DNA from: Streptomyces aurantiacus
Lineage (GTDB): Bacteria; Actinomycetota; Actinomycetes; Streptomycetales; Streptomycetaceae
NCBI RefSeq assembly: GCF_027107535.1
Contig: NZ_CP114283.1
Location: forward strand, 6,758,001-6,822,000
Reading direction: 5' to 3'
DNA: 64,000 nucleotides
The position numbers and the translations under genes were made by a program. Positions 34,014 to 44,714 of the stretch are shown here, in pieces (the first letter of the stretch is position 1; the number at the start of each line of letters is the position of its first letter). Under the pieces are notes generated by a model that was not told the origin of the DNA, did no database searches, and saw nothing but the letters and a program-made list of their open reading frames with translations.

Positions 34014-35067
34014 CGCCGAACTTCCCCTCTGTCGAGCCGAGTTCGTGGCACGCCTCGGTGAACCGGTCCAGGCAGCGCCCCCACGCCCCGCCCGTCCCGA
34101 ACTCCAGGAGGTGCGGTGTCAGGGCCGCCGAGAAGTCCGTGCTCGCCTCCTCGGGCAGCAGGGAGGGAAGGTTGTCGATGGCGATGAGGTCCAGGGCGGG
34201 CCGGTCGTGCAGGCGTCGTACGGGATCCGTCCAGTCGGTGATCGTGTCGTAGACCGGCAGGACGTTGTACGGGGAGCCGACGTCGCAGGTCACGTCGCAC
34301 ACGGTGCCGAGGCGGCGGCCCGGGTCGTCGAGGTCCTTGTCGGTGAGGAAGGGTGTGGCGGGCCCGGTGGTGAGCACCGTGTTCACCATCAGCTCGTGCT
34401 CCAGCAGGGCCTGCCGGTCCAGGGCGCGGGTCTCGGCGAGATCCCAGCGGGTGGGTTCGAGTCCGGCCTCGATGAGCGCGACCCCGGCTCCGCGTCCGGA
34501 GCGGCCCAGCGCCCCGATCACGAGTGAGGAGAATCGCTCGTCGCCGGACGCCGGGCGCAGGCCGGCGTCCAGTTCCTCCTTCGACGTCGGCCGCAGCGGA
34601 GCCGTCAGCCTGCCCCGGTGGTGCAGGACGGCGAGGGCGGCGCCCACATAGCCCGCCCAGTAGCCGAAGGCGGCGAGCCTGCGCCCGTCGTCGTCCACCA
34701 GGTACTCCAGGTCGAACAGCGCCCCGCCGCCTGCGACGAAGCGGCGCAGCAGCGCCCCGGCGCCGGACTGTGCCTTGTACGCGTGCCCGAAGAAGAGGTG
34801 CCGGTGCCTCAACTCCCCGGGGGCATCGGGCAGTTCCTTGAGGCCGACGATCACCGCGTCCGCCGGTGCGTCCCTCCAGGTTCCCGCCTCGACGACACGG
34901 CAGCCCGCCGCCTCGTACGCCTCGGCCGGGAAGATCCGCTGCGGGGACTCCTCGACGGTGAGCGTCACGCCGGCCTCGGCGAGCCGCCGGGCGTCGGACG
35001 GCACGACGGCGGTGCGCCGCTCGGTCGTACGGGTCTCGTGGCGCAGCCACAGGTGCAGCTCGGTCAT
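34006..35067 (-). CDS. Saccharopine dehydrogenase (lysine-forming type, LYS1-like)
   Basis: A 353-residue member of the AlaDH/PNT-fold saccharopine dehydrogenases. The opening LWLRHETRTTERRTAVVP and the mid-protein FFGHAYKAQSG segment are characteristic. The reaction joins lysine and 2-oxoglutarate through a reducible imine, or its reverse. It overlaps the FAD oxidoreductase by 4 bases (ATGA) and the downstream reductase by 8. Finding the two saccharopine enzymes side by side but separate recalls the fungal/animal pathway rather than the usual actinobacterial lysine degradation through cadaverine or aminovalerate. Confidence 0.87.
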   Translation of the reverse strand: MTELHLWLRHETRTTERRTAVVPSDARRLAEAGVTLTVEESPQRIFPAEAYEAAGCRVVEAGTWRDAPADAVIVGLKELPDAPGELRHRHLFFGHAYKAQSGAGALLRRFVAGGGALFDLEYLVDDDGRRLAAFGYWAGYVGAALAVLHHRGRLTAPLRPTSKEELDAGLRPASGDERFSSLVIGALGRSGRGAGVALIEAGLEPTRWDLAETRALDRQALLEHELMVNTVLTTGPATPFLTDKDLDDPGRRLGTVCDVTCDVGSPYNVLPVYDTITDWTDPVRRLHDRPALDLIAIDNLPSLLPEEASTDFSAALTPHLLEFGTGGAWGRCLDRFTEACHELGSTEGKFGDA

Positions 35068-36218
35068 ACGCGGTTGACCTCCGGTCGCGGGGCGTCGGCG
35101 GCGAACCGTTCGGCACGCAGCGGGGTGATGTCGACGAAGGGATCATGCCCCAGGTAGAGGTCACGGACGACCTCGCCGACGGCCGGTCCCTGGAGGAAGC
35201 CGTGCCCGGAGAACCCGGTCGCGTACAGGAAGCGGGAGACCGAACCGGCCTCGCCGATCAGCGCGTTGTGGTCCGGGGTGATCTCGTACAGGCCGGCCCA
35301 GCCGCCCGTCCTGCGCAGGCCGAGCAGGGAGGGGGCGCGGCGCTCCATGGCCGCGCACAGGCGGGGGATCCAGCGGTCGTGCGTCCCGGTGGCGAACCCG
35401 GTCTCCTCGTCGGGGTCCGACATGCCGACGAGGAGACCGGGACCTTCGGTGTGGAAGTACAGGCTGCTGGTGAAGTCGATGGTCATGGGCAGGCCGGGCG
35501 GCAGGTCGGGGGCCGGTTCGGTCACGGCGATCTGGCGGCGCAGCGGCTCCACCGGCAGGTCGACGCCGGCCATCGCGCCGACGGCCCGGGACCAGGCGCC
35601 CGCCGCGCAGACCACGGCCCCGGTGGCGATCCGGCCCAGGCGGGTGACGACGGCCGTGATGTCGTCACCCCGTGTCTCGATGCCGGTGACCTCGCAGTGC
35701 CTGACGATCCTCGCGCCGTGGCGGCGGGCGGCGGCCGCGTATCCGTGCACCACGGCCTCGGGGGTGCAGTGGCCGTCGTCCGGGGAGAAGGCGGCGGCCA
35801 GCAGCCCCTCGGTGGTGATCAGCGGCGAGAGGCGGCGGGCCTCGGCCGGGTCCAGCATGCGGCTGGGCACCCCGAGGCCGTTCTGCAGCCGTACCCCGGC
35901 CTCGAACGCCTCGACCTCCTCGGGTGTCGACAGGAGGAAGAGGTAGCCGACGCGGTGCAGCCCGATGTCGTGGCCCGTCTCCTCGCCGAAGCGGGCGAAC
36001 GCCTCCAGGCTCCGTGCGCCGAGCTGGATGTTGAGCTCGTCGGAGAACTGGGCGCGCACGCCTCCCGCGGCCCGCGAGGTGGACCCCGAGGCGAGTTCGT
36101 CCCGCTCGACCAGCACCACGTCGGGCACTTTGGCCCGCGCGAGGTGGTAGGCGATGCTCGCGCCCATCACCCCGCCGCCGATGACGACGACTCCCGCGCG
36201 CCCGGGCACACCTGTCAT
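35064..36218 (-). CDS. FAD-dependent oxidoreductase (DAO/sarcosine-oxidase family)
   Basis: A 384-residue flavoenzyme of the D-amino acid/glycine/sarcosine oxidase group. The dinucleotide motif VVVIGGGVMGASIAYHL starts near residue 10; the glycine-rich ATGFSGHGFLQGPAVGE close to the end is typical of secondary-amine oxidases. In this operon a secondary amine such as saccharopine or pipecolate would be a fitting substrate; a flavin-dependent saccharopine oxidase is known from fungi. ATG 36218 overlaps the cyclodeaminase-like gene by 4 bases. Soluble, cytoplasmic. Confidence 0.88.
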   Translation of the reverse strand: MTGVPGRAGVVVIGGGVMGASIAYHLARAKVPDVVLVERDELASGSTSRAAGGVRAQFSDELNIQLGARSLEAFARFGEETGHDIGLHRVGYLFLLSTPEEVEAFEAGVRLQNGLGVPSRMLDPAEARRLSPLITTEGLLAAAFSPDDGHCTPEAVVHGYAAAARRHGARIVRHCEVTGIETRGDDITAVVTRLGRIATGAVVCAAGAWSRAVGAMAGVDLPVEPLRRQIAVTEPAPDLPPGLPMTIDFTSSLYFHTEGPGLLVGMSDPDEETGFATGTHDRWIPRLCAAMERRAPSLLGLRRTGGWAGLYEITPDHNALIGEAGSVSRFLYATGFSGHGFLQGPAVGEVVRDLYLGHDPFVDITPLRAERFAADAPRPEVNRV

Positions 36219-37204
36219 GGGCGGGGCTCCCCTCCGCGGGCGCGTTCCCGCGCGGCGTCGATCACGGCCCAGGCTGCGGCGGCGTCCTGGACGCCGAGGC
36301 CGACGCTGTTGTAGTAGACGATGTCCCGCGCGCTCGTCCGTGCTTCGCGGCGGCCCGTGAGCACGGCGCCGAGCGGGATCAGGTCGTCGTGGGCGAGTGT
36401 TCCGGAGCGCAGCGCGTCCACCACGGGCCCGGCGTGTCCCGCCGCGGTCGCCGGATCGTCGACGACGACGGCGGCGGCTCTCCGGAGGACCGCGGGGTCG
36501 ACCTCGCTCCGGCTCGGTTCGAAGGAGCCGACGCTCACGACCGTGCATCCCGGCGCGAGCCATTCGCCCCGGACGACGGGTGTCCTGCTGAGGGTGCAGG
36601 CCGCGACCATGGGCAGTCCGGCCACGGCCTCCTCCGGCAAGTCCACGGCCTCGACGCTGATGGCGAGTTCGGCGGCGAGCAGCCGGGCCGCCCGGTCGCG
36701 CCGGTCCGGGGTGGGACTCCACAGCCGTACCGCTCGCAGGTCCCGCACCCGGGCGACGGACCGCGCGTGGGCGAGGGCCTGCGTGCCGGAGCCGAGGAGT
36801 CCGAGTTCGGCGCTGTCGGGGGTGGCGAGCGCGTCGAGGGCCACCGCGCTCGCGGCGGCCGTGCGCAGGGTCGTCACCTCCGTGCCGTCCATGACGGCGA
36901 CGAGGCGCCCGGTGACCGGGTCGAGGGCGTTGATCACGGCGTGCACGGTCGGCAGTCCGCCGGCCGCGTTGCCCGGGTTGACGCTGCCGAACTTGGCCAC
37001 GGCCCCGGTGTCCGCGGACAGCCGCGCGAGGTAGGCGAACACGACGCTGTCGTCGAGCCCGCTCGGGTGCATGATCTTCCCCGGCAGCTCGGCGGTGCCG
37101 TCGCCGAGTGCGGTGAAGGCGGCCCGCTGGGAGCGGATCGCGGCGTCGGTGTCGAGCAGGCCGGCCACCTGGTCGCGGGAGAGATGGAGGACGTCGTCGG
37201 TCAC
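36215..37204 (-). CDS. Ornithine cyclodeaminase/mu-crystallin family protein
   Basis: A 329-residue NAD(P)-dependent enzyme. The K-x-G motif AKFGSVNPGN (Lys near residue 70), the MDGTEVTTLRTAAASAVA helix and the Rossmann GLLGSGTQALAHA are intact. Relatives are ornithine or lysine cyclodeaminases (proline, pipecolate) and ketimine reductases. With saccharopine enzymes downstream, lysine-to-pipecolate or reduction of a cyclic imine fits. The GTG at 37204 follows GAAGAGGG. First gene of the operon. Confidence 0.9.
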   Translation of the reverse strand: MTDDVLHLSRDQVAGLLDTDAAIRSQRAAFTALGDGTAELPGKIMHPSGLDDSVVFAYLARLSADTGAVAKFGSVNPGNAAGGLPTVHAVINALDPVTGRLVAVMDGTEVTTLRTAAASAVALDALATPDSAELGLLGSGTQALAHARSVARVRDLRAVRLWSPTPDRRDRAARLLAAELAISVEAVDLPEEAVAGLPMVAACTLSRTPVVRGEWLAPGCTVVSVGSFEPSRSEVDPAVLRRAAAVVVDDPATAAGHAGPVVDALRSGTLAHDDLIPLGAVLTGRREARTSARDIVYYNSVGLGVQDAAAAWAVIDAARERARGGEPRP

Positions 37205-37266
37205 CCCTCTTCCCTTCCCCCGTCCGTACCGGTCTCACCACGTCCCGGGCGTCCGGGTGACGTGCC

Positions 37267-37324: not shown

Positions 37325-37984
37325 TCAGACGCGGTGGCCCACGACGGCGTCCAGGTGGGGCAGATCGTGGTCCAGACGCTCGCGCTTGGTGCGGAGGTAG
37401 GTGATGTTGTCGTCGCAGGGCGGGATCAGCAGCGGCACCTGCGCGTCGACCTCGATGCCGTTGCGGAGCAACGCCTCCCGCTTGCGCGGGTTGTTGGACA
37501 GCAGTCTCACCGAGCGGACGCCGAGGTCGTGCAGGATGTCCGCGGCCACGCCGTAGTCACGGGCGTCCACGGGCAGTCCGAGCGCGAGGTTCGCCTCGAC
37601 CGTGTCGAGGCCCTCCGCCTGGAGCTTCATCGCCTGGAGCTTGGCCAGCAGACCGATGCCACGACCCTCGTGCCCCCGGAGGTAGATCAGAATGCCGCGG
37701 CCCTCCGCCGCGATCTTCCGCAGTGCGGTGGAGAGCTGGGGTCCGCACTCGCAGTGCCGGGACCCGAACGCGTCGCCGGTCAGGCACTCGGAGTGCAGCC
37801 GGGCGAGCATTCCCTCCTCCCGGATGTCACCGTATACCAGGGCCACTTGTTCGTCTCCGCGGGTACGGTCCAGGTAGCCGACGGCCTGGAAATCCCCGTA
37901 CACCGTGGGCAGCGGGGCATTCACGACCCGCTCGACGCCTGCGGAGTGGGATTTCCCGGCGAGTACGCCATCTATTTCTGTCAT
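37325..37984 (-). CDS. GTP cyclohydrolase II variant (Tyr-to-Met, FAPy-forming type)
   Basis: A 219-residue GCH II. Zinc ligands C67, C78 and C80 and the YLRGHEGRGIGL loop are intact, so the ring-opening chemistry should work. The residue equal to E. coli RibA Tyr105 is Met119 (in LQAMKLQ). In S. coelicolor the paralogue SCO6655 carries the same Tyr-to-Met change and was reported to stop at the formylated intermediate FAPy instead of releasing formate. The gene stands alone, without other riboflavin genes, and is divergent by 39 bases from a creatininase-family gene that could remove the formyl group. ATG 37984 has a weak AGGA site. A role outside riboflavin synthesis is inferred. Confidence 0.9.
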   Translation of the reverse strand: MTEIDGVLAGKSHSAGVERVVNAPLPTVYGDFQAVGYLDRTRGDEQVALVYGDIREEGMLARLHSECLTGDAFGSRHCECGPQLSTALRKIAAEGRGILIYLRGHEGRGIGLLAKLQAMKLQAEGLDTVEANLALGLPVDARDYGVAADILHDLGVRSVRLLSNNPRKREALLRNGIEVDAQVPLLIPPCDDNITYLRTKRERLDHDLPHLDAVVGHRV

Positions 37985-38023
37985 GATTCTGGTTCCTAAG
38001 CAGAGACGAAAGGTCGCGAGAAC

Positions 38024-38815
38024 ATGGTCAATTCGGGCGGTTCGGAAATACGGCTCACGATGTCAGGTCCGTTGCCGGTGGACACCACGGAAGACGTACG
38101 GGCACGAGGCGCCGATGTCGCCCGGCAGGTCGCCGTGCTCCCCGTGGGCAGCTTCGAGCAGCACGGTGCGTATCTTCCGCTGTCGACCGACACGCTCGTC
38201 GCGTGTGCGATCGCCCGGGAGGTCGCTGCAGCATTCCCCGTTCACCTCCTTCCTCCGGTGACGATCTCCTGCTCGCACGAACACGCGGCCTGGCCGGGAA
38301 CGGTGAGCATTTCCTCCGTGACACTCCATGCGATGGTGCGGGACATAGCCGAATCGCTGCGCCGCTCCGGGGTGGACACGCTCGTACTGATCAATGGTCA
38401 TGGCGGAAATTACGTACTGGGAAATGTAGTTCAGGAATCCTCCGCGGCCGGCGCTCGAATGGCTCTGTTCCCGGCGGCCGAGGACTGGGAGGCGGCACGG
38501 GTGGCGGCAGGGGTGGAGACCTCGCTGCTCACTGATATGCATGCGGGGGAAATTGAGACCTCCATTCTGCTGCACACGGATCCGGAATTCCTCAGGCCTG
38601 GCTACGAGACCTCCGACTTCGTCGCCGACGACCGTCGGCAGCTGCTCTCTCTCGGCATGTCGGCCTATACCAAGTCCGGTGTCATCGGACGCCCTTCGAG
38701 GGCGTCCGCGGGGAAGGGGAAGGAACTGCTGGCCTCGCTCGCCGACTCCTTCGGAGCGTACTTCTCGCTGCTGACATCGGAGTCCGGACTGCCGCCGGTG
38801 GTCGATTCGCACTGA
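38024..38815 (+). CDS. Creatininase-family amidohydrolase (possible FAPy deformylase)
   Basis: A 263-residue metal-dependent amidohydrolase. Ligand residues follow the family pattern: E45 and H47 in GSFEQHG, D56, H126 in NGHGGN, and the DMHAGEIETS segment with E176/E178. The family includes creatininase, MftE and the archaeal ArfB, which hydrolyses the formamide of FAPy. Its divergence from a FAPy-type GTP cyclohydrolase favours an ArfB-like role; no mycofactocin genes are nearby. ATG 38024 or 38060 could be the start, neither with a strong ribosome site. Its last 151 bases overlap the flippase-like gene on the other strand. Codon use is somewhat less GC-biased than its neighbours (e.g. AAT TAC, GGA AAT). 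Confidence 0.85.
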   Translation: MVNSGGSEIRLTMSGPLPVDTTEDVRARGADVARQVAVLPVGSFEQHGAYLPLSTDTLVACAIAREVAAAFPVHLLPPVTISCSHEHAAWPGTVSISSVTLHAMVRDIAESLRRSGVDTLVLINGHGGNYVLGNVVQESSAAGARMALFPAAEDWEAARVAAGVETSLLTDMHAGEIETSILLHTDPEFLRPGYETSDFVADDRRQLLSLGMSAYTKSGVIGRPSRASAGKGKELLASLADSFGAYFSLLTSESGLPPVVDSH

Positions 38816-40035
38816 GCGTCCCCGTCCCCGTTCCCTTCCGCTTCCGCGCGGCCCGGCTTCCGTGCTCCCGGCGACCGCGGGACCGGTCCGGCCGCCGCGC
38901 CGTCCTCACGCGGGCTCCGCAGTCCCCCGTACCAACGCGCCACCAGTACGGCGACACCGGGCAGGCTCGCGGCGAAGCTGAGCACGCCGTAGACGACGGC
39001 CACGGTCAGGCCCTGGGTCGCGCCGAGGCCCGCGGCGCCGAACGCCCAGGCGGTGACGCCCTCCCTCGGCCCCCAGCCGCCGACGTTCAGCGGCAGGCTC
39101 ATGGCGATCAGGGCCAGCAGCGCCAGCGGCACCAACTCGGCGGCGGACGCGGCGGACCCGGCGACCCGGGCCGCGAGCAGGAACATCAGGACGTGCCCCG
39201 CGAGCACCACGACGGACGAGATCACCACGCCCGGCCAGCTCCCGCGCGCCAGCAGTGCTCCGCGCGCCTCGGCGAGCGTGGCACGAACGGCCCGGCGGCG
39301 GCGGGACGTACGGGGCGATCTGCCCCGGCCCCGGACGGCGCCCACGGTGACGACCCCGCACAGCGAGACGACGGCCAGCAGCAGGGCGAGGTGCCGGGTC
39401 TGGGACAGGACCGGCGAGGGCTGTGTGAGCAGTACGGCCACACCCACCACGGCCAGGACCACCTGGCCCGCGACCCGCTCCAGGACGACGGCGCGTACTC
39501 CGCGGCCGACGTCCCCGGCGCTCTGCCCGTGCCGTACCGCCCGGTGCACGTCGCCGAGGACCCCGCCCGGCAGCGCCGCGTTGAGGAACAGCGCGCGGTA
39601 GTAGTCCGCGACGGCCGGGCCCAGCGGGAGCCTGAGCCGCAGGCCGCGGGCCACCACGCACCAGCGCCAGGCGCTGAACACCGTGGTGAGCACGCCGATG
39701 CCGAGCGCCGCGAGGAGCGTGAGCGAGTCGATGCGGCGCAGGCCGTCGAGGAAGACGCCGGTCCCCAGCCGCCAGGTCAGCACGGTGAGGATGACGACAC
39801 CGGCGATCGTGCCGAAGTGGGTGCGCAGGATCCGGGAGTCGAGGCGGGCGCGGACACGGCCCAGGAGGCCGGCCCCGCCGCCGTGCGGGCGCACGGCGGG
39901 CGGGCCGCTCTTCGCGGCGGTCCGCGACCGCGGCGCCGTCGCGTCGGCGCCGCGGTCGCGGACCGCCGCCGACAGTTCGTCGTCCAGGGCGGCCAGTGAC
40001 CGCGCCTCCTCTTCCGCCACGGCCTGCGCGCCCAT
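38665..40035 (-). CDS. Flippase-like membrane protein (lysylphosphatidylglycerol-synthase TM family)
   Basis: A 456-residue polytopic protein of the UPF0104/AglD-type family, with about eight hydrophobic segments between residues 75 and 395. The conserved YYRALFLNAALPGGVLGDVHRA and LPLNVGGWGPREG regions match the LPG-synthase transmembrane domain; the catalytic GNAT-like domain of MprF is missing. Such stand-alone domains are thought to move or modify lipid-linked compounds. The N-terminus has an Arg/Asp-rich repeat with an 18-base inverted repeat (39915-39965 region) in the DNA. ATG 40035 overlaps the methyltransferase stop by one base (TGATG), implying coupling. Its tail runs 151 bases into the opposite creatininase gene. 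Confidence 0.85.
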   Translation of the reverse strand: MGAQAVAEEEARSLAALDDELSAAVRDRGADATAPRSRTAAKSGPPAVRPHGGGAGLLGRVRARLDSRILRTHFGTIAGVVILTVLTWRLGTGVFLDGLRRIDSLTLLAALGIGVLTTVFSAWRWCVVARGLRLRLPLGPAVADYYRALFLNAALPGGVLGDVHRAVRHGQSAGDVGRGVRAVVLERVAGQVVLAVVGVAVLLTQPSPVLSQTRHLALLLAVVSLCGVVTVGAVRGRGRSPRTSRRRRAVRATLAEARGALLARGSWPGVVISSVVVLAGHVLMFLLAARVAGSAASAAELVPLALLALIAMSLPLNVGGWGPREGVTAWAFGAAGLGATQGLTVAVVYGVLSFAASLPGVAVLVARWYGGLRSPREDGAAAGPVPRSPGARKPGRAEAEGNGDGDAQCESTTGGSPDSDVSSEKYAPKESASEASSSFPFPADALEGRPMTPDLV

Positions 40036-41027
40036 CACACTTCCCCGCCCGGGCGGGCCAGCGCGAGCAGGTCGCTGTGGTGGACCACCGCGCGCAGCTC
40101 CCCCGCCTCGCACGCCGTGAGGCGCTCCTGGAGGTAGGCCGCCGCCGGGCCGGCCAGTTCCGGGCGCTGTTCGACGGCCGCGCCGACCCAGCCGCGCAGC
40201 CACTCCGCCGTCAGCGCGGACTCGTCGGGTCCGAGGCGCCACGCGCTGGGGTGCACCCGTACCGTCGCGCCGTGCCGGGCGAAGGCGTCGCAGGCCGCGT
40301 TGATCGCTTCGGGGCCGAGCAGGTCTCCGCGCCGCTGGTGGTCGTTGAACGCCTCGGCGATCTCGGCGTCCAGCGGATGGGCCGGGGTCAGTTCGACCCG
40401 TCCGACCACCGAGAGTGTGAGGAGGGCGGGGCAGCCGGCCCCGGCGCAGGCCGCGGCCAGTGTCTCGATCTCGTCGGGGGTGAGGACGTCCAGCAGCGCG
40501 GAGGCCGTCACCAGCGAGGCGCCGGCCAGGGCGTCCGCGGTGAGCCGGCCGACGTCGCCGCGCTGCGTCTCCACCGTGACCCGGCTGCCGTCGGCGGCCG
40601 AACGGGGTGACCCGACGGCGGCGAAGTGCAGCAGGTACGGGTCGTGGTCGTGCAGCACCCAGTGCTGGGGCCCGTCGAGCCGGGGCGCGAGCCAGCGTCC
40701 CATGGATCCGGTGCCGCAGCCGAGATCGTGGATGACGAACCCGTTGGCCCGCCGGGGCAGGTTCGCGAGCCGGATCCGCAGGGGATCGAGCAGCTCGGAG
40801 GCCCGGGCCGAGGCGTCGACGCCCTCGCGCAGCTGAAGCCACTCGGGGGCGTAACGGGTGGTGTCGTCGGTGGCTTCGCCGCGGGTGCGGTCGCCGAGCC
40901 GAATCGTTCCTGTGTCCCGTCCGCCGTCCACGGCCCCGGAACCGGCCTGCGTCATGTCGCCCGGTCCCGGCGCGGTCGTCGTAGCGGCCCCCGGAACCCC
41001 TGTCGGCGTGGTGCTCGTTCCGCTCAT
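40035..41027 (-). CDS. Class I SAM-dependent methyltransferase
   Basis: A 330-residue protein. The first 55 residues are Thr/Gly/Pro-rich and probably disordered. Motif I FVIHDLGCGTGSMGRWL near residue 97 binds SAM, with VLHDHDPYLL as the acidic loop and ASLVTASALLDVLTPDE as motif post II. Substrate unknown; operon context suggests the cluster metabolite. ATG 41027 overlaps the glycosyltransferase gene by 4 bases and has GGAGG upstream; the stop overlaps the flippase start. Confidence 0.9.
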   Translation of the reverse strand: MSGTSTTPTGVPGAATTTAPGPGDMTQAGSGAVDGGRDTGTIRLGDRTRGEATDDTTRYAPEWLQLREGVDASARASELLDPLRIRLANLPRRANGFVIHDLGCGTGSMGRWLAPRLDGPQHWVLHDHDPYLLHFAAVGSPRSAADGSRVTVETQRGDVGRLTADALAGASLVTASALLDVLTPDEIETLAAACAGAGCPALLTLSVVGRVELTPAHPLDAEIAEAFNDHQRRGDLLGPEAINAACDAFARHGATVRVHPSAWRLGPDESALTAEWLRGWVGAAVEQRPELAGPAAAYLQERLTACEAGELRAVVHHSDLLALARPGGEV

Positions 41028-42151
41028 GCCGCCCCCCTCCTTGCCTCGCTCTTCAGTCGCCCCAGGACACCCGACAGACTCCGGGCCGTGGTGGCCCAGC
41101 CTCCCAGGGACGCCCGGCGGGCCCGCGCGGCGGCCTTGAGGCGCCGGCGTACGTCTGCCTCGTCGAACCAGCCTCGCAGTTCCGCGGCGAGGGCCGCGGG
41201 ATTCTCCGGCGGGACGAGCAGGCCGGGCACCCCGCCGTCGGGTGCGCGCCCGACCGCTTCGGGGAGCCCGCCGACGTCCGTGGCCAGCACGGGAATCCCG
41301 CGGGCGAGCGCCTCGGTGACGGCCATGCCGTACGTCTCCGCGTACGAGGTGAGGACCATCAGGTCGGCGGAGGCGTAGCTCGCGTCGAGTGCGGCGCCCG
41401 ACTGGGGGCCGGCGAGGTGCAGCCGGTCGCCGAGGCCGTGTTCGTCGATCAGGTTCCGCAGTCCGGCCACGTACTCGGGGTCCTGGTTGAGGCCGCCGAC
41501 GAGGACGCAGCTCCAGCGCAGGTCGGTGACGGTGGCGAGGGCCTCGACGAGACGGTGCTGTCCCTTGCGCGGGGTGACCGAGGCCACGCACAGCAGTCTC
41601 GACACGCCGTCGGTGCCGGGTGCGAGCGGAGCGATGTCGGCGCCGGGGGCGGCGACATGGACCCGGTCGGGCGCCAGTCCGTGGTGGGCGACGAGTCTGC
41701 GGGCCGCCCACTCGCTGGTGGCGACGACGGCCGGCACGGCACGCAGGGTGCGGCGCTCCCGGGCGTCCAGGTCCGCGGCCAGCGCGGGCGTGAGCCCCGT
41801 CTCGTCACCGAGCGGCAGATGCACGAGGACGACCAGGCGCAGGCGTCCGGCCTCCGGGATGACGATCTCGGGGACCGAGCAGGCGACCAGACCGTCGAGG
41901 AGTACGACGGTGCCGTCGGCCAGGTCCGCGAGGGTGCGGGCCAGTTCGGCACGGGCCGGGGCTCCGGGCTGGGGCCAGCTGCCGTCGATGGCGTGCTTGT
42001 GCACCTGCCAGCCGAAGCCGGGCAGGTCGAGGCTGACCCGGGCGTCGTACACGTTGCCGCCGCTGGGCATGGTCGGGTCGTCCACTCCGCCGGGCATCAC
42101 GAAGTGCATGGCGCGCAGGGACATGGGGATGATGTCGGCGTGGTGGTTCAC
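41024..42151 (-). CDS. Glycosyltransferase family 4
   Basis: A 375-residue GT-B enzyme. The C-terminal half shows [19 protein letters not shown] (phosphate-binding) and the E-x7-E motif [16 protein letters not shown], diagnostic of GT4 retaining transferases. No signal or membrane segment. The GTG at 42151 overlaps the stop of the pterin-synthase-like gene by 4 bases (GTGA). Sugar donor and acceptor are unknown; the neighbouring CDP-alcohol phosphatidyltransferase and flippase make a lipid-linked acceptor possible. Confidence 0.9.
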
Positions 42152-42546
42152 AGCGCACGCTCGTAACTCGCCCAGGCGATGTGCGACTCGTGCAGGGTGA
42201 CCGTGATGCCGGCCAGGCCGCGGGCTCCCTCGCCCAGCGCCCCCTTCTCCACGCGCTCGGCGAGGCGGTCGGCGACGACCTTGGCCAGGAACTCCGTGGA
42301 GGTGTTGGTGTCGGCGAACACCGGCTCGTTGTCGAGGTTGCGGTAGTTCATCTCGGCCACCACCTCCCCGAGTTCCCTGGTGGCCAGTCCGATGTCGACG
42401 ACGATGTTGTCGTCGTCCAGCTCGGCGCGGCGGAACGTGGCGTCCACGAGGAACGTCGCTCCGTGAAGGCGCTGCGCGGGTCCGAAGACCTCTCCGCGGA
42501 AGCTGTGGGCGATCATCAGGTGATCGCGGACGGTGATGCTGAACAA
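42148..42546 (-). CDS. 6-pyruvoyl-tetrahydropterin synthase/QueD-fold protein with altered active site
   Basis: A 132-residue T-fold protein. The overall pattern of PTPS/QueD is clear: IAHSF near residue 13, LHG at 27-29, and the substrate-anchoring Glu E120 in LHESH. Key residues are not: A30 replaces the third zinc histidine (HGH is HGA), A24 replaces the catalytic cysteine, and the Asp-His pair of the triad reads N67-Y68 (MNYRNLD). A standard PTPS or carboxytetrahydropterin synthase reaction is therefore unlikely; it may bind a pyrimidine or pterin and do other chemistry. The start is a TTG at 42546 with a strong GGAGGG 7 bases upstream. First gene of the operon to 38665. Confidence 0.85.
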
Positions 42547-42812
42547 CGGACGACCCTCCAGGTGCGGCGCGTCTGACCCCTCTGCCGGGGCGTGCCGTGT
42601 AGTACGGCCGGTCCGTTCTCCGTGTTCAGGGGGTTCGGGGCGGAGTTTCGGACAGGGTGCCCGGGACAGGGCGGCCAGGGGCGCGTAGTGCGAACTTGAT
42701 TACCGACGTGCGGATTCGCTCCGCTCGGGGCGTGCGACCGGCGGCCGGCCCGGGAGGGCCGCCCGCGCCGGGCGCCGGGCGCGGGGCCGCGGATGTCACG
42801 GCCCCGTGCCGC

Positions 42813-43787
42813 TCAGGGGTAGCGGACCAGGTGGCACATGGCCGTCGTCTCTCCCGTGGTGAGCCCGGCCATCGCCTCGGGCAGGTCCTCGAAGGCGCAT
42901 TCGCCGGTGATCAGGGCGTCGAAGGCGGGATCCGCGAGGAGTTCGAGCGAGATGGCCAGCCGGTCGGCGTACGTGCGGCGGGAACTCCTGGCCGGTGAGA
43001 CGGACCCGACCTGGCTGCTGCGTATGACGAGGCGGCGGGAGTGGAACGCCTCGCCGAGCGGCAGGCTGACCTTCCGGTCGCCGTACCAGCTCAGTTCGAG
43101 GACGGTTCCCTCCGGGGCGAGGAGTTCGAGCGCGCGGGCGAGTCCGGCCTCGGTGGCGCTCGCGTGGACGACGAGGTCGCGGTCGCCCGCGGCGTCCTGC
43201 GGGAGGGCGAAATCGATGCCGAGGGCCCGCGCGAGGTCCGCGCGTGCCGGGTTGGCGTCGACGAGCTGGACCCGGGCGGCGGGATACCGGGCGAGGAGCG
43301 CGGCGACACTCGCGCCGACCATGCCCGCGCCGACCACGGAGATCCGGTCGCCGATCAGGGGCGCCGCGTCCCAGAGCGCGTTGACGGCGGTCTCCACGGT
43401 CCCGGCGAGCACGGCCCGCGCGGCGGGCACGTCGTCCGGTACGGGTGTGACGGCGCTCGCGGGGACGACGTACCGGCTCTGGTGCGGATAGAGACAGAAG
43501 ACGGTCCGTCCGACGAGTTCCGCGGGCCCCTCCTCCACGGTTCCGACATTCAGGTACCCGTACTTGACGGGCCCGGGGAAGTCCCCTTCCTGGAAGGGCG
43601 CCCGCATGGCGGCGTACTGACTCTCCGGCACCCCTCCGCGGAAGACGAGCGTCTCCGTTCCGCGGCTCACCCCCGAGAAGAGTGTTCGCACCAGGACCTC
43701 GCCCTCGGCGGGTTCCGGCAGGTGGGTGTCCCGGAGCTCGCCACGGCCGGGAGAGCTGAGCCAGAAGGCGCGGGCGGAGCGGTCCAT
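42813..43787 (-). CDS. MDR-family (zinc-type alcohol) dehydrogenase lacking zinc cysteines
   Basis: A 324-residue medium-chain dehydrogenase. Residues 20-110 form the GroES-like domain (LFSGVSRGTETLVFRGG); the Rossmann motif is ISVVGAGMVGASVAALL. The four structural-zinc cysteines and the usual catalytic cysteine are missing, as in zinc-independent branches. The H in CLYPHQSRY could still bind a metal. ATG 43787 is set by GGAGGATGCCGA; the open frame further upstream is ignored. It lies 266 bases upstream of the pterin-fold gene on the same strand, with hairpins between, so it may be a separate transcript. Divergent from the CDP-alcohol transferase gene across 144 bases. Confidence 0.87.
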   Translation of the reverse strand: MDRSARAFWLSSPGRGELRDTHLPEPAEGEVLVRTLFSGVSRGTETLVFRGGVPESQYAAMRAPFQEGDFPGPVKYGYLNVGTVEEGPAELVGRTVFCLYPHQSRYVVPASAVTPVPDDVPAARAVLAGTVETAVNALWDAAPLIGDRISVVGAGMVGASVAALLARYPAARVQLVDANPARADLARALGIDFALPQDAAGDRDLVVHASATEAGLARALELLAPEGTVLELSWYGDRKVSLPLGEAFHSRRLVIRSSQVGSVSPARSSRRTYADRLAISLELLADPAFDALITGECAFEDLPEAMAGLTTGETTAMCHLVRYP

Positions 43788-43931
43788 TCGGCATCCTCCT
43801 GAGTAGTCCATGTGAATGGGCTGAGCGGGCGGGCTGAACGATCGGGCGGCGAGCCACGTACCGACCTTTGCGAAGCCGCGCACAAGGTACGCGGCAATGA
43901 TCGTCTCTGTCACCTGGCCGGAGGATGTGCG

Positions 43932-44714
43932 GTGGCCCTGAACAACACGTACGACGCGAGGCTCTTGCAGCAGGAGACTGCCCTGGGAGCGGGCGTGCAG
44001 CTTCTGTTGCTGGCCGTGCTCGGCACGGCGATCGGCCTGGGCCCCGCGGGCTGGCTCACGGGGCTGGCCTTCGGCCTTGCGACGTGGGCGGTGCTCTCAC
44101 GCGCCCTGCACCGCTCGCGGCCTCGTTCCTTCGGGGTCGCGAACCGCGTGACGCTGGGTCGGGCCACCCTCGTCGGAGGGGTGACCGCCCTGGTCGCGGA
44201 CTCCTTCCAGAGTCCGCCGCCGGTGACGGTCCTGGTCGCGCTCACCGCGGTCGCCCTCATCCTCGACGCGGTCGACGGCAAGGTCGCCCGCCGCACCGGT
44301 TCCTCCACGGCGCTGGGGGCACGCTTCGACATGGAGGTCGACGCGTTCCTCATCCTGGTGCTCAGCGTGTACGTCGCCGCGTCGGTGGGCCCCTGGGCCC
44401 TCCTCATCGGCGCGATGCGCTACGCCTTCGTGGCGGCCGCCAAGTTCCTCCCGTGGCTCAACGGCACCCTCCCGCCGAGCACCGCCCGCAAGACGGTGGC
44501 GGCCCTCCAGGGAGTCCTGCTGCTGCTCGGCGGCTCCGGGATCCTTCCGTACGCCCTGACCTTCGGGGTCGTCGCCCTGGCCCTGGGCCTGCTGACCTGG
44601 TCGTTCGGCCGGGACATCGGGTGGTTGTGGCGGACGAGGGGCTCCGTCGAGCGCGAGGTGGCGCGCATCGAGGTGGAGCGCCTGCGCGAGACGGCGGGCG
44701 CGGGCGCCTCGTAG
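43932..44714 (+). CDS. CDP-alcohol phosphatidyltransferase family membrane protein
   Basis: A 260-residue membrane enzyme. The full signature D-x2-D-G-x2-A-R-x8-G-x3-D-x3-D is present (from LDAVDGKVAR to DMEVD, about residues 116-141), so both metal ions and the CDP group should bind. About six to eight hydrophobic helices. Family members join an alcohol (inositol, glycerol-P, choline) to a CDP-activated lipid; the alcohol here is unknown. The GTG at 43932 is fixed by GGAGGA with 6 bases between. It ends at the hairpin 44757-44796. Confidence 0.9.
   Translation: MALNNTYDARLLQQETALGAGVQLLLLAVLGTAIGLGPAGWLTGLAFGLATWAVLSRALHRSRPRSFGVANRVTLGRATLVGGVTALVADSFQSPPPVTVLVALTAVALILDAVDGKVARRTGSSTALGARFDMEVDAFLILVLSVYVAASVGPWALLIGAMRYAFVAAAKFLPWLNGTLPPSTARKTVAALQGVLLLLGGSGILPYALTFGVVALALGLLTWSFGRDIGWLWRTRGSVEREVARIEVERLRETAGAGAS

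What the first reader, a model, noticed from the sequence alone, without database searches (positions are those of the whole stretch)
37325..44714. Eight-gene block centred on a FAPy-forming GTP cyclohydrolase
A GCH II variant, a creatininase-family amidohydrolase, a T-fold pterin-synthase-like protein, methyltransferase, GT4, flippase-like membrane protein, MDR dehydrogenase and CDP-alcohol phosphatidyltransferase are packed together, four of them with 1-4 base overlaps. Archaea make FAPy with ArfA and remove its formyl group with the creatininase-family ArfB; here a GCH II variant could replace ArfA. The membrane genes suggest the pyrimidine or pterin product is linked to sugar or lipid. I know of no assigned product for this set.
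Basis: partly seen in the sequence, partly recalled or inferred. Interest (0 to 1): 0.85.

Follow-up and report, generated by a model that had tools for sequence, protein, structure and literature searches.

The report
Split GTP-opening gene cluster, product unknown
A block of eight neighbouring genes, kept in the same order in many Streptomyces and related to gene sets in other bacteria, appears to open GTP in two separate enzyme steps and to turn the product into an unknown, probably membrane-linked molecule.

Summary
The eight genes are real and at the stated coordinates. They form a conserved unit: 76 of 80 named Streptomyces loci show the same order and strands, the other four being cut by contig ends. 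The PTPS-like protein matches PDB 3D7J (SCO6650), so this is the SCO6648-SCO6655 type of region by gene count.

The FAPy reading gains support. The GCH II has Met119 where canonical enzymes have Tyr. Of 184 loci assembled, 149 have a readable GCH II: all 116 with a non-Tyr enzyme also encode the creatininase, none of the 33 with Tyr does. On the tree this is one, perhaps two, origins. Tyr-type loci carry a RibD_C reductase instead (31 of 33). A creatininase-family FAPy formamidase, BrbF, is known in Sinorhizobium (PMC9478397).

The core (MDR, PTPS-like, methyltransferase, mostly RibD_C and GT4) also occurs on Pseudomonadota plasmids. The product, probably glycosylated and membrane-linked, is unassigned; that part is inference. 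Caveat: close creatininase paralogues exist in genomes whose only GCH II has Tyr.

The parts
37325..37984 (-). GCH II variant, Met119 in place of the catalytic Tyr, CEC zinc loop; predicted to stop at the formylated pyrimidine (FAPy/AFRPP)
   Evidence: PF00925 218.8 bits; Met aligned to Tyr of 2bz0 and 4i14; residue table; counterpart of SCO6655 by gene count
38024..38815 (+). creatininase-family amidohydrolase, predicted formamidase for the GCH II product
   Evidence: PF02633 207.4 bits; E45, H47, D56, H126, H173, E176 conserved in at least 97% of 117; fold match to creatininases
38665..40035 (-). LPG_synthase_TM (flippase-like) membrane protein
   Evidence: PF03706 112.2 bits; ATG overlaps the MT stop by 1 base
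40035..41027 (-). class I methyltransferase of unknown substrate
   Evidence: Methyltransf_25 just under cut-off; AlphaFold model pLDDT 85 with class I methyltransferase matches; GT4 and a methyltransferase domain are fused in L246
41024..42151 (-). GT4 glycosyltransferase
   Evidence: PF00534 110.9 bits
42148..42546 (-). PTPS-like T-fold protein without the HGH zinc motif (FGPAQxxHGAT)
   Evidence: PF01242 77.1 bits; full-length match E 4.3e-74 to 3d7j, SCO6650
42813..43787 (-). MDR (zinc-binding alcohol dehydrogenase family, BchC-like) dehydrogenase
   Evidence: ADH_zinc_N 29.3 bits and BchC 50.9 bits, both below cut-off; present in 80 of 80 named loci and in the plasmid relatives
43932..44714 (+). 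CDP-alcohol phosphatidyltransferase family membrane enzyme; possible upstream start at 43812
   Evidence: PF01066 49.5 bits; motif DxxDGxxARx8GxxxDxxxD intact, also in 76 of 76 complete loci

Best explanation
The block is a dedicated biosynthetic pathway. A GCH II that has lost its deformylating Tyr opens GTP to the formylaminopyrimidine nucleotide. The creatininase-family enzyme removes the formyl group, giving 2,5-diamino-6-ribosylamino-4(3H)-pyrimidinone 5'-phosphate. This is the archaeal ArfA-ArfB logic made from bacterial parts, and it may keep the intermediate apart from riboflavin synthesis: the genome has two further GCH II genes, both with Tyr. The PTPS-like protein, MDR and methyltransferase then convert the diaminopyrimidine (in related clusters after reduction to the ribityl form by a RibD_C reductase) into a modified pyrimidine or pteridine. 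GT4 adds sugar, the CDP-alcohol transferase makes a phosphodiester link (to lipid or a polyol) and the LPG_synthase_TM protein moves the product across the membrane. Shown by sequence: gene unit, residue swap, partner coupling, conserved core. Inferred: every reaction, and above all the steps after deformylation.
For: Order identical in 76 of 80 named loci. Met119 for Tyr. 116 of 116 non-Tyr loci carry the creatininase, 0 of 33 Tyr loci do; zinc loop CEC in 116 of 116 vs CDC in 33 of 33. Within the genus, cluster-type creatininase is in 16 of 16 genomes with the PTPS-like gene and 0 of 12 without. The window genome and four of four other creatininase-cluster genomes examined (G211, G279, G321, G715) keep a separate Tyr GCH II. 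RibD_C reductase in 31 of 33 Tyr loci and 7 of 116 non-Tyr loci. Related core in eight annotated Pseudomonadota plasmid regions. GT4-methyltransferase fusion in L246. BrbF precedent (PMC9478397).
Against: The non-Tyr/creatininase link rests on one or two origins, not 116. In the class draw 30 genomes have a creatininase of the strong class (E below 1e-100); six of these lack the PTPS-like gene, a seventh (G056) has one in pieces, and the only GCH II in each of these seven has Tyr; these paralogues are 57-67% identical to the window's, so sequence alone does not fix the function. The creatininase fails the ArfB, MftE and creatininase equivalog cut-offs. 109 of 116 creatininase loci, the window's included, show no RibD_C reductase in the stretch, and the own genome has no close copy of the Streptomyces cluster reductase (at most 33% identity to the 8 of 13 PF01872 places held). 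No substrate is known for MDR, MT or GT4.
Confidence: 0.6

Rival explanations
1. Split GTP cyclohydrolase I: GCH II plus creatininase perform ring opening and deformylation, and the zinc-less T-fold PTPS-like protein catalyses the Amadori rearrangement and ring closure to a dihydropterin, which is then glycosylated and methylated (a pterin glycoside or glycolipid).
For: The PTPS-like protein keeps the PF01242 match and an invariant Glu120 while HGH is replaced by HGA; that ring closure needs no zinc is recalled chemistry of GCH I.
Against: Loci of the same core carry a RibD_C reductase (31 of 33 Tyr loci), which would reduce the ribose and block that closure. This is weaker for the window, whose cluster has none.
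Confidence: 0.2
2. The cluster is an auxiliary riboflavin or F420 precursor branch: it only supplies extra diaminopyrimidine, as the BrbF branch does in Sinorhizobium, and the other genes are unrelated neighbours.
For: BrbF makes riboflavin precursor (PMC9478397); PMC5041015 mentions, as unpublished, a PTPS subfamily in archaeal F420 synthesis (passage seen).
Against: All eight genes stay together in 76 of 80 loci, and the non-GCH genes form the conserved core in other bacteria. Tyr GCH II copies are kept beside it.
Confidence: 0.1
3. The creatininase has another substrate (for example a lactam or amide formed later in the pathway) and the GCH II deformylates normally despite Met119.
For: Close paralogues occur in genomes without a non-Tyr GCH II; family equivalog cut-offs not met.
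Against: Strict pairing with the residue swap; cluster creatininases and the paralogues lie on two sides of one branch (SH-aLRT 94, 40 rows); recalled assay that SCO6655 stops at FAPy.
Confidence: 0.1

Closest known systems
S. coelicolor SCO6648-SCO6655 region (SCO6650, PDB 3D7J; SCO6655)
   Same: PTPS-like protein about 87% identical over its 132 residues (my count on the alignment); SCO6655 is listed as GCH II (PMC2853524, passage), five locus tags from SCO6650, as here
   Different: No product or pathway found assigned; the S. coelicolor DNA itself was not fetched, so the genes between are matched by count only
BrbF, creatininase-family AFRPP formamidase of Sinorhizobium (PMC9478397)
   Same: Pfam-level family and proposed reaction
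   Different: Serves riboflavin; its FAPy-forming partner is said to be undiscovered; no such cluster described in the parts seen; its sequence was not compared
Archaeal ArfA-ArfB-ArfC start of riboflavin/F420 synthesis
   Same: FAPy nucleotide, separate deformylase, then RibD_C-type reduction (reductase in related clusters only)
   Different: GCH II variant instead of ArfA; creatininase below the ArfB model cut-off (39 vs 180 bits); goes on to GT4, MT and membrane genes
PTPS/QueD T-fold enzymes
   Same: PF01242
   Different: HGH replaced by HGA; QueD equivalog score 34 vs cut-off 89

Membership tests
Canonical GTP cyclohydrolase II (RibA) | PF00925 domain with three zinc Cys | tested here: met
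   218.8 bits; Cys invariant in 116 of 116 non-Tyr and 35 of 35 Tyr rows
Canonical GTP cyclohydrolase II (RibA) | Catalytic Tyr needed for deformylation (role recalled) | tested here: not met
   Met119 against Tyr in 2bz0 and 4i14
FAPy-forming GCH II (SCO6655 type) | Met at that position (recalled) and a place five genes from a SCO6650-type gene | tested here: met
FAPy-forming GCH II (SCO6655 type) | Product is the formylated nucleotide | not testable with these tools
   needs an enzyme assay
ArfA (GTP cyclohydrolase III) | ArfA-family sequence | tested here: not met
   only GTP_cyclohydro2 in Pfam at E up to 0.001
ArfB | NF033501 score above cut-off | tested here: not met
   39 vs 180 bits
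Mycofactocin MftE | TIGR03964 score above cut-off | tested here: not met
   130 vs 172 bits
Creatininase (creatinine hydrolase) | TIGR04448 score above cut-off | tested here: not met
   89.9 vs 235 bits
Creatininase superfamily | Metal-binding residues (roles recalled) and fold | tested here: met
   E45, H47, D56, H126, E176 conserved; the 26 matches with E up to 0.001 are all creatinine amidohydrolases, TM by query 0.62-0.71
BrbF | Same clade as SMc02977 | not tested
   SMc02977 sequence not fetched
PTPS / QueD | HGH zinc motif | tested here: not met
   HGA in 13 of 13 rows of A1
PTPS / QueD | PF01242 T-fold family | tested here: met
   77.1 bits; 3d7j
CDP-alcohol phosphotransferase | Catalytic DxxDG motif (recalled) | tested here: met

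The most novel reading that the evidence does not exclude
A widespread, unrecognised class of membrane-anchored redox compound: a ribityl-diaminopyrimidine or pteridine, methylated and glycosylated, joined through a phosphodiester to lipid and flipped to the outer face, where in Rhizobiaceae and Thiodictyon a clustered cytochrome b561 exchanges electrons with it. Streptomyces supplies it through a split GTP-opening module and perhaps makes it in the second (sporulating) mycelium.
Probability: 0.2. Interest if true: 0.92.

Novelty: new variant of a known kind. Interest (0 to 1): 0.72.

Why it matters
It turns an isolated biochemical oddity (a GCH II recalled to stop at FAPy) into a testable pathway: a split enzyme pair with a clear residue-partner rule, feeding a core found in two phyla and also on plasmids. 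It also suggests where to look for the missing FAPy-forming partner of BrbF: GCH II copies without the Tyr. The final compound would probably be new.

Tried and rejected
Rfam scan of the window: no family at gathering score. Papers: ten searches, nothing on the cluster as such; the paper on the SCO6650 structure could not be opened under a recalled DOI. AlphaFold model of the methyltransferase: pLDDT 85, but its matches are generic class I methyltransferases (TM by query at most 0.52 in the 50 listed), so no substrate. Rejected: 'the membrane genes are just neighbours' (they are conserved); 'creatininase is MftE' (score below cut-off; none of the other genes in the block matched a mycofactocin model). 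The creatininase count lost 35 loci, the window among them, because overlapping hits were dropped; it was redone per query. Three pairs of non-Tyr loci have identical GCH II cores, so 113 are distinct. PTPS-like genes with no other cluster gene found nearby: L027, L257, L266.

Results against a simple story: 34 of 184 loci have no GCH II in the stretch; at least seven of these are cut by contig ends and several others (L027, L254, L257, L260) are not cluster loci, but some, such as L203, L208 and L215, are otherwise well-populated clusters with neither GCH II nor creatininase. The 'archaeal-type' label for the RibD_C reductase holds only for the L148 example; those of L246 and L264 match the bacterial RibD C-terminal model better. 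Of the 21 plasmid records with a PTPS-like match, 16 stretches were fetched; in one (L266) there is no cluster, and in L271 only MDR, PTPS-like and GT4 were found.
Full report
What is there. The eight genes lie at 37325-44714 as described. PTPS-like, GT4, MT and flippase-like genes run on the minus strand with overlaps of 4, 4 and 1 bases; MDR is upstream on the same strand after 266 bases; the CDP-alcohol transferase is divergent from MDR; the creatininase is divergent from GCH II (39 bases apart) and convergent with the flippase-like gene.

Conservation. The PTPS-like gene is in 13 of 25 same-genus genomes and 0 of 16 others among 41 relatives. In 76 of these 80 all eight genes are present in one order and strand pattern; the four exceptions end at contig ends. 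Because they are the best matches, they say little about divergent relatives. Of 13 loci from unnamed relatives, 10 are complete, two contig-cut and one (L027) is a lone PTPS-like gene. In a class-wide draw 43 of 296 genomes match: 16 of 28 of the genus and 27 of 268 others. Other draws, with the wider alignment A2: 78 of 396 in the phylum, most of those outside the class weak; 28 of 100 in family f19; 37 of 61 in f39; 77 of 147 in the order, all in the genus.

Link to what is known. The PTPS-like protein matches one solved chain, 3d7j, 'Uncharacterized protein SCO6650', E 4.3e-74. PMC2853524 lists SCO6655 as GTP cyclohydrolase II (passage seen), five tags away, as here. By this count SCO6652 is the methyltransferase; PMC3610822 lists SCO6652, as a hypothetical protein, up 4.3 and 4.1 log2 units in second mycelium at 48 and 72 h against first mycelium (one section read). 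That SCO6655 makes only FAPy, with Met for Tyr, and that SCO6650 lacks zinc, are recalled from papers of Spoonamore, Bandarian and colleagues that are not held here.

The residue-partner rule. The window GCH II has Met119 where E. coli GCH II (2bz0; organism recalled) and the RibBA chain 4i14 have Tyr. I assembled 184 loci: 13 from unnamed relatives, 80 named, 30 and 60 from wider draws, and the window. 149 have a readable GCH II: 116 non-Tyr (Met 97, His 15, Leu 3, Gln 1), all with the creatininase in the stretch, and 33 Tyr, none with it. The gap between the two genes is under 500 bases in 103 of 116. Some Tyr loci are not clear cluster loci (L253 shows only a weak PTPS hit; L165 and L166 are divergent). 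113 of the 116 GCH II cores are distinct. The zinc loop reads CEC in 116 of 116 and CDC in 33 of 33. Of the other 35 loci, 33 have neither GCH II nor creatininase in the stretch, L221 is contig-cut with creatininase, and L245 has a cut GCH II. Outside the 184: seven Pseudomonadota plasmid clusters with RibA have Tyr and no creatininase hit, and two Streptomyces plasmid clusters have Met and creatininase. On a 74-row tree the non-Tyr sequences form one side of one branch (SH-aLRT 82) beside RibBA-type enzymes. So the rule reflects one or two origins kept ever since, with at least four further changes among Met, His, Leu and Gln and no return to Tyr in the rows used.

The creatininase. Metal-type residues are conserved in at least 97% of 117; the AlphaFold model (pLDDT 83) matches creatininases best. 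In the class draw 108 of 296 genomes have some match at E up to 1e-30; 30 have one below 1e-100, namely 24 genomes with the PTPS-like gene (16 of 16 of the genus, 8 of 27 others) and 6 without; 0 of 12 genus genomes without the PTPS-like gene have one. A seventh genome without the PTPS-like gene (G056) holds pieces, and G211 holds a second copy. Eight such paralogue loci were inspected: in seven (from G051, G123 twice, G093, G271, G287 and G211; not G330) a shared neighbour family lies just upstream; of four of these neighbours scanned, two have helix-turn-helix and one TPR matches, all below cut-off. The seven genomes without the PTPS-like gene have one GCH II each, with Tyr. Cluster creatininases and eight paralogues separate on a 40-row tree (SH-aLRT 94). 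BrbF of Sinorhizobium, also annotated as creatininase, deformylates the FAPy nucleotide; its authors write that it lacks sequence similarity to ArfB and that the enzyme making its substrate there is undiscovered (PMC9478397: abstract, discussion and passages).

The rest of the pathway. 31 of 33 Tyr loci carry a RibD_C reductase; the motif GxxTxxxDxPxL is in 49 of 49 reductase hits (its meaning recalled). For the L148 example the best NCBIfam is the archaeal 2,5-diamino-6-ribosylamino-pyrimidinone phosphate reductase, below cut-off (128 vs 186 bits), and the closest solved chains are 5xux and its variants, then 6p8c, 4xrb and 2azn; the L246 and L264 examples match the general RibD C-terminal model best. 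Seven of 116 non-Tyr loci also have a reductase, as does S. globisporus plasmid L277. On plasmids of Pseudomonadota and of Microbacterium the annotated neighbours are MDR, PTPS-like, GT4, MT and RibD with, in various subsets, CDP-alcohol transferase, LPG_synthase_TM, RibA and cytochrome b561 (L262, L263, L264, L267, L270, L276). L268 and L272 lack the adjacent GT4, and L265 shows no RibD. In L246, from another class of the phylum, GT4 and MT are one 641-residue protein and the PTPS keeps HGH. I read this as a core that modifies the diaminopyrimidine, with GT4, CDP-alcohol transferase and flippase-like protein finishing a membrane-linked product. No step after deformylation is shown.

Verdict. 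The FAPy/deformylase interpretation is well supported by comparison and precedent; the lipid or sugar linkage is plausible only. The system is a new variant of known riboflavin-precursor chemistry, with an unassigned end product.

Noticed in passing
L278, L279, L280, L281, L282, L284, L285: Creatininase paralogues about 57-63% identical to the window's sit just downstream of a shared gene family with weak helix-turn-helix or TPR matches. A possible regulator-amidohydrolase pair; G211 has it besides the cluster.
   Followed up: partly
L262 11528-12085; L264 12055-12582; L270 12026-12565; L276 12011-12544: Cytochrome b561 gene beside the RibD gene in Pseudomonadota versions of the cluster; in L264, L270 and L276 also a gene annotated as sulfatase (no Pfam match at 0.001 for that of L264).
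   Followed up: partly
L246 10216-12141: GT4 and methyltransferase domains fused in one 641-residue protein.
   Followed up: partly
L027, L257, L266 (PTPS-like matches at about 9496, 9768 and 9001): PTPS-like paralogues with none of the other cluster genes found nearby.
   Followed up: no
window 35064-37241: FAD-dependent oxidoreductase (DAO) frame beside GCH II; a strong match lies within 1.5 kb of GCH II in 41 of 76 complete loci.
   Followed up: partly
L178 5914-7110 and 7824-8453: One of the own genome's Tyr-type GCH II genes lies close to a frame that looks like a reductase followed by a deaminase, the reverse of the usual RibD order (recalled); RibD_C match, deaminase part judged by eye.
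   Followed up: no
window 38665-38815: Convergent 3' overlap of 151 bases between creatininase and flippase-like frames.
   Followed up: no
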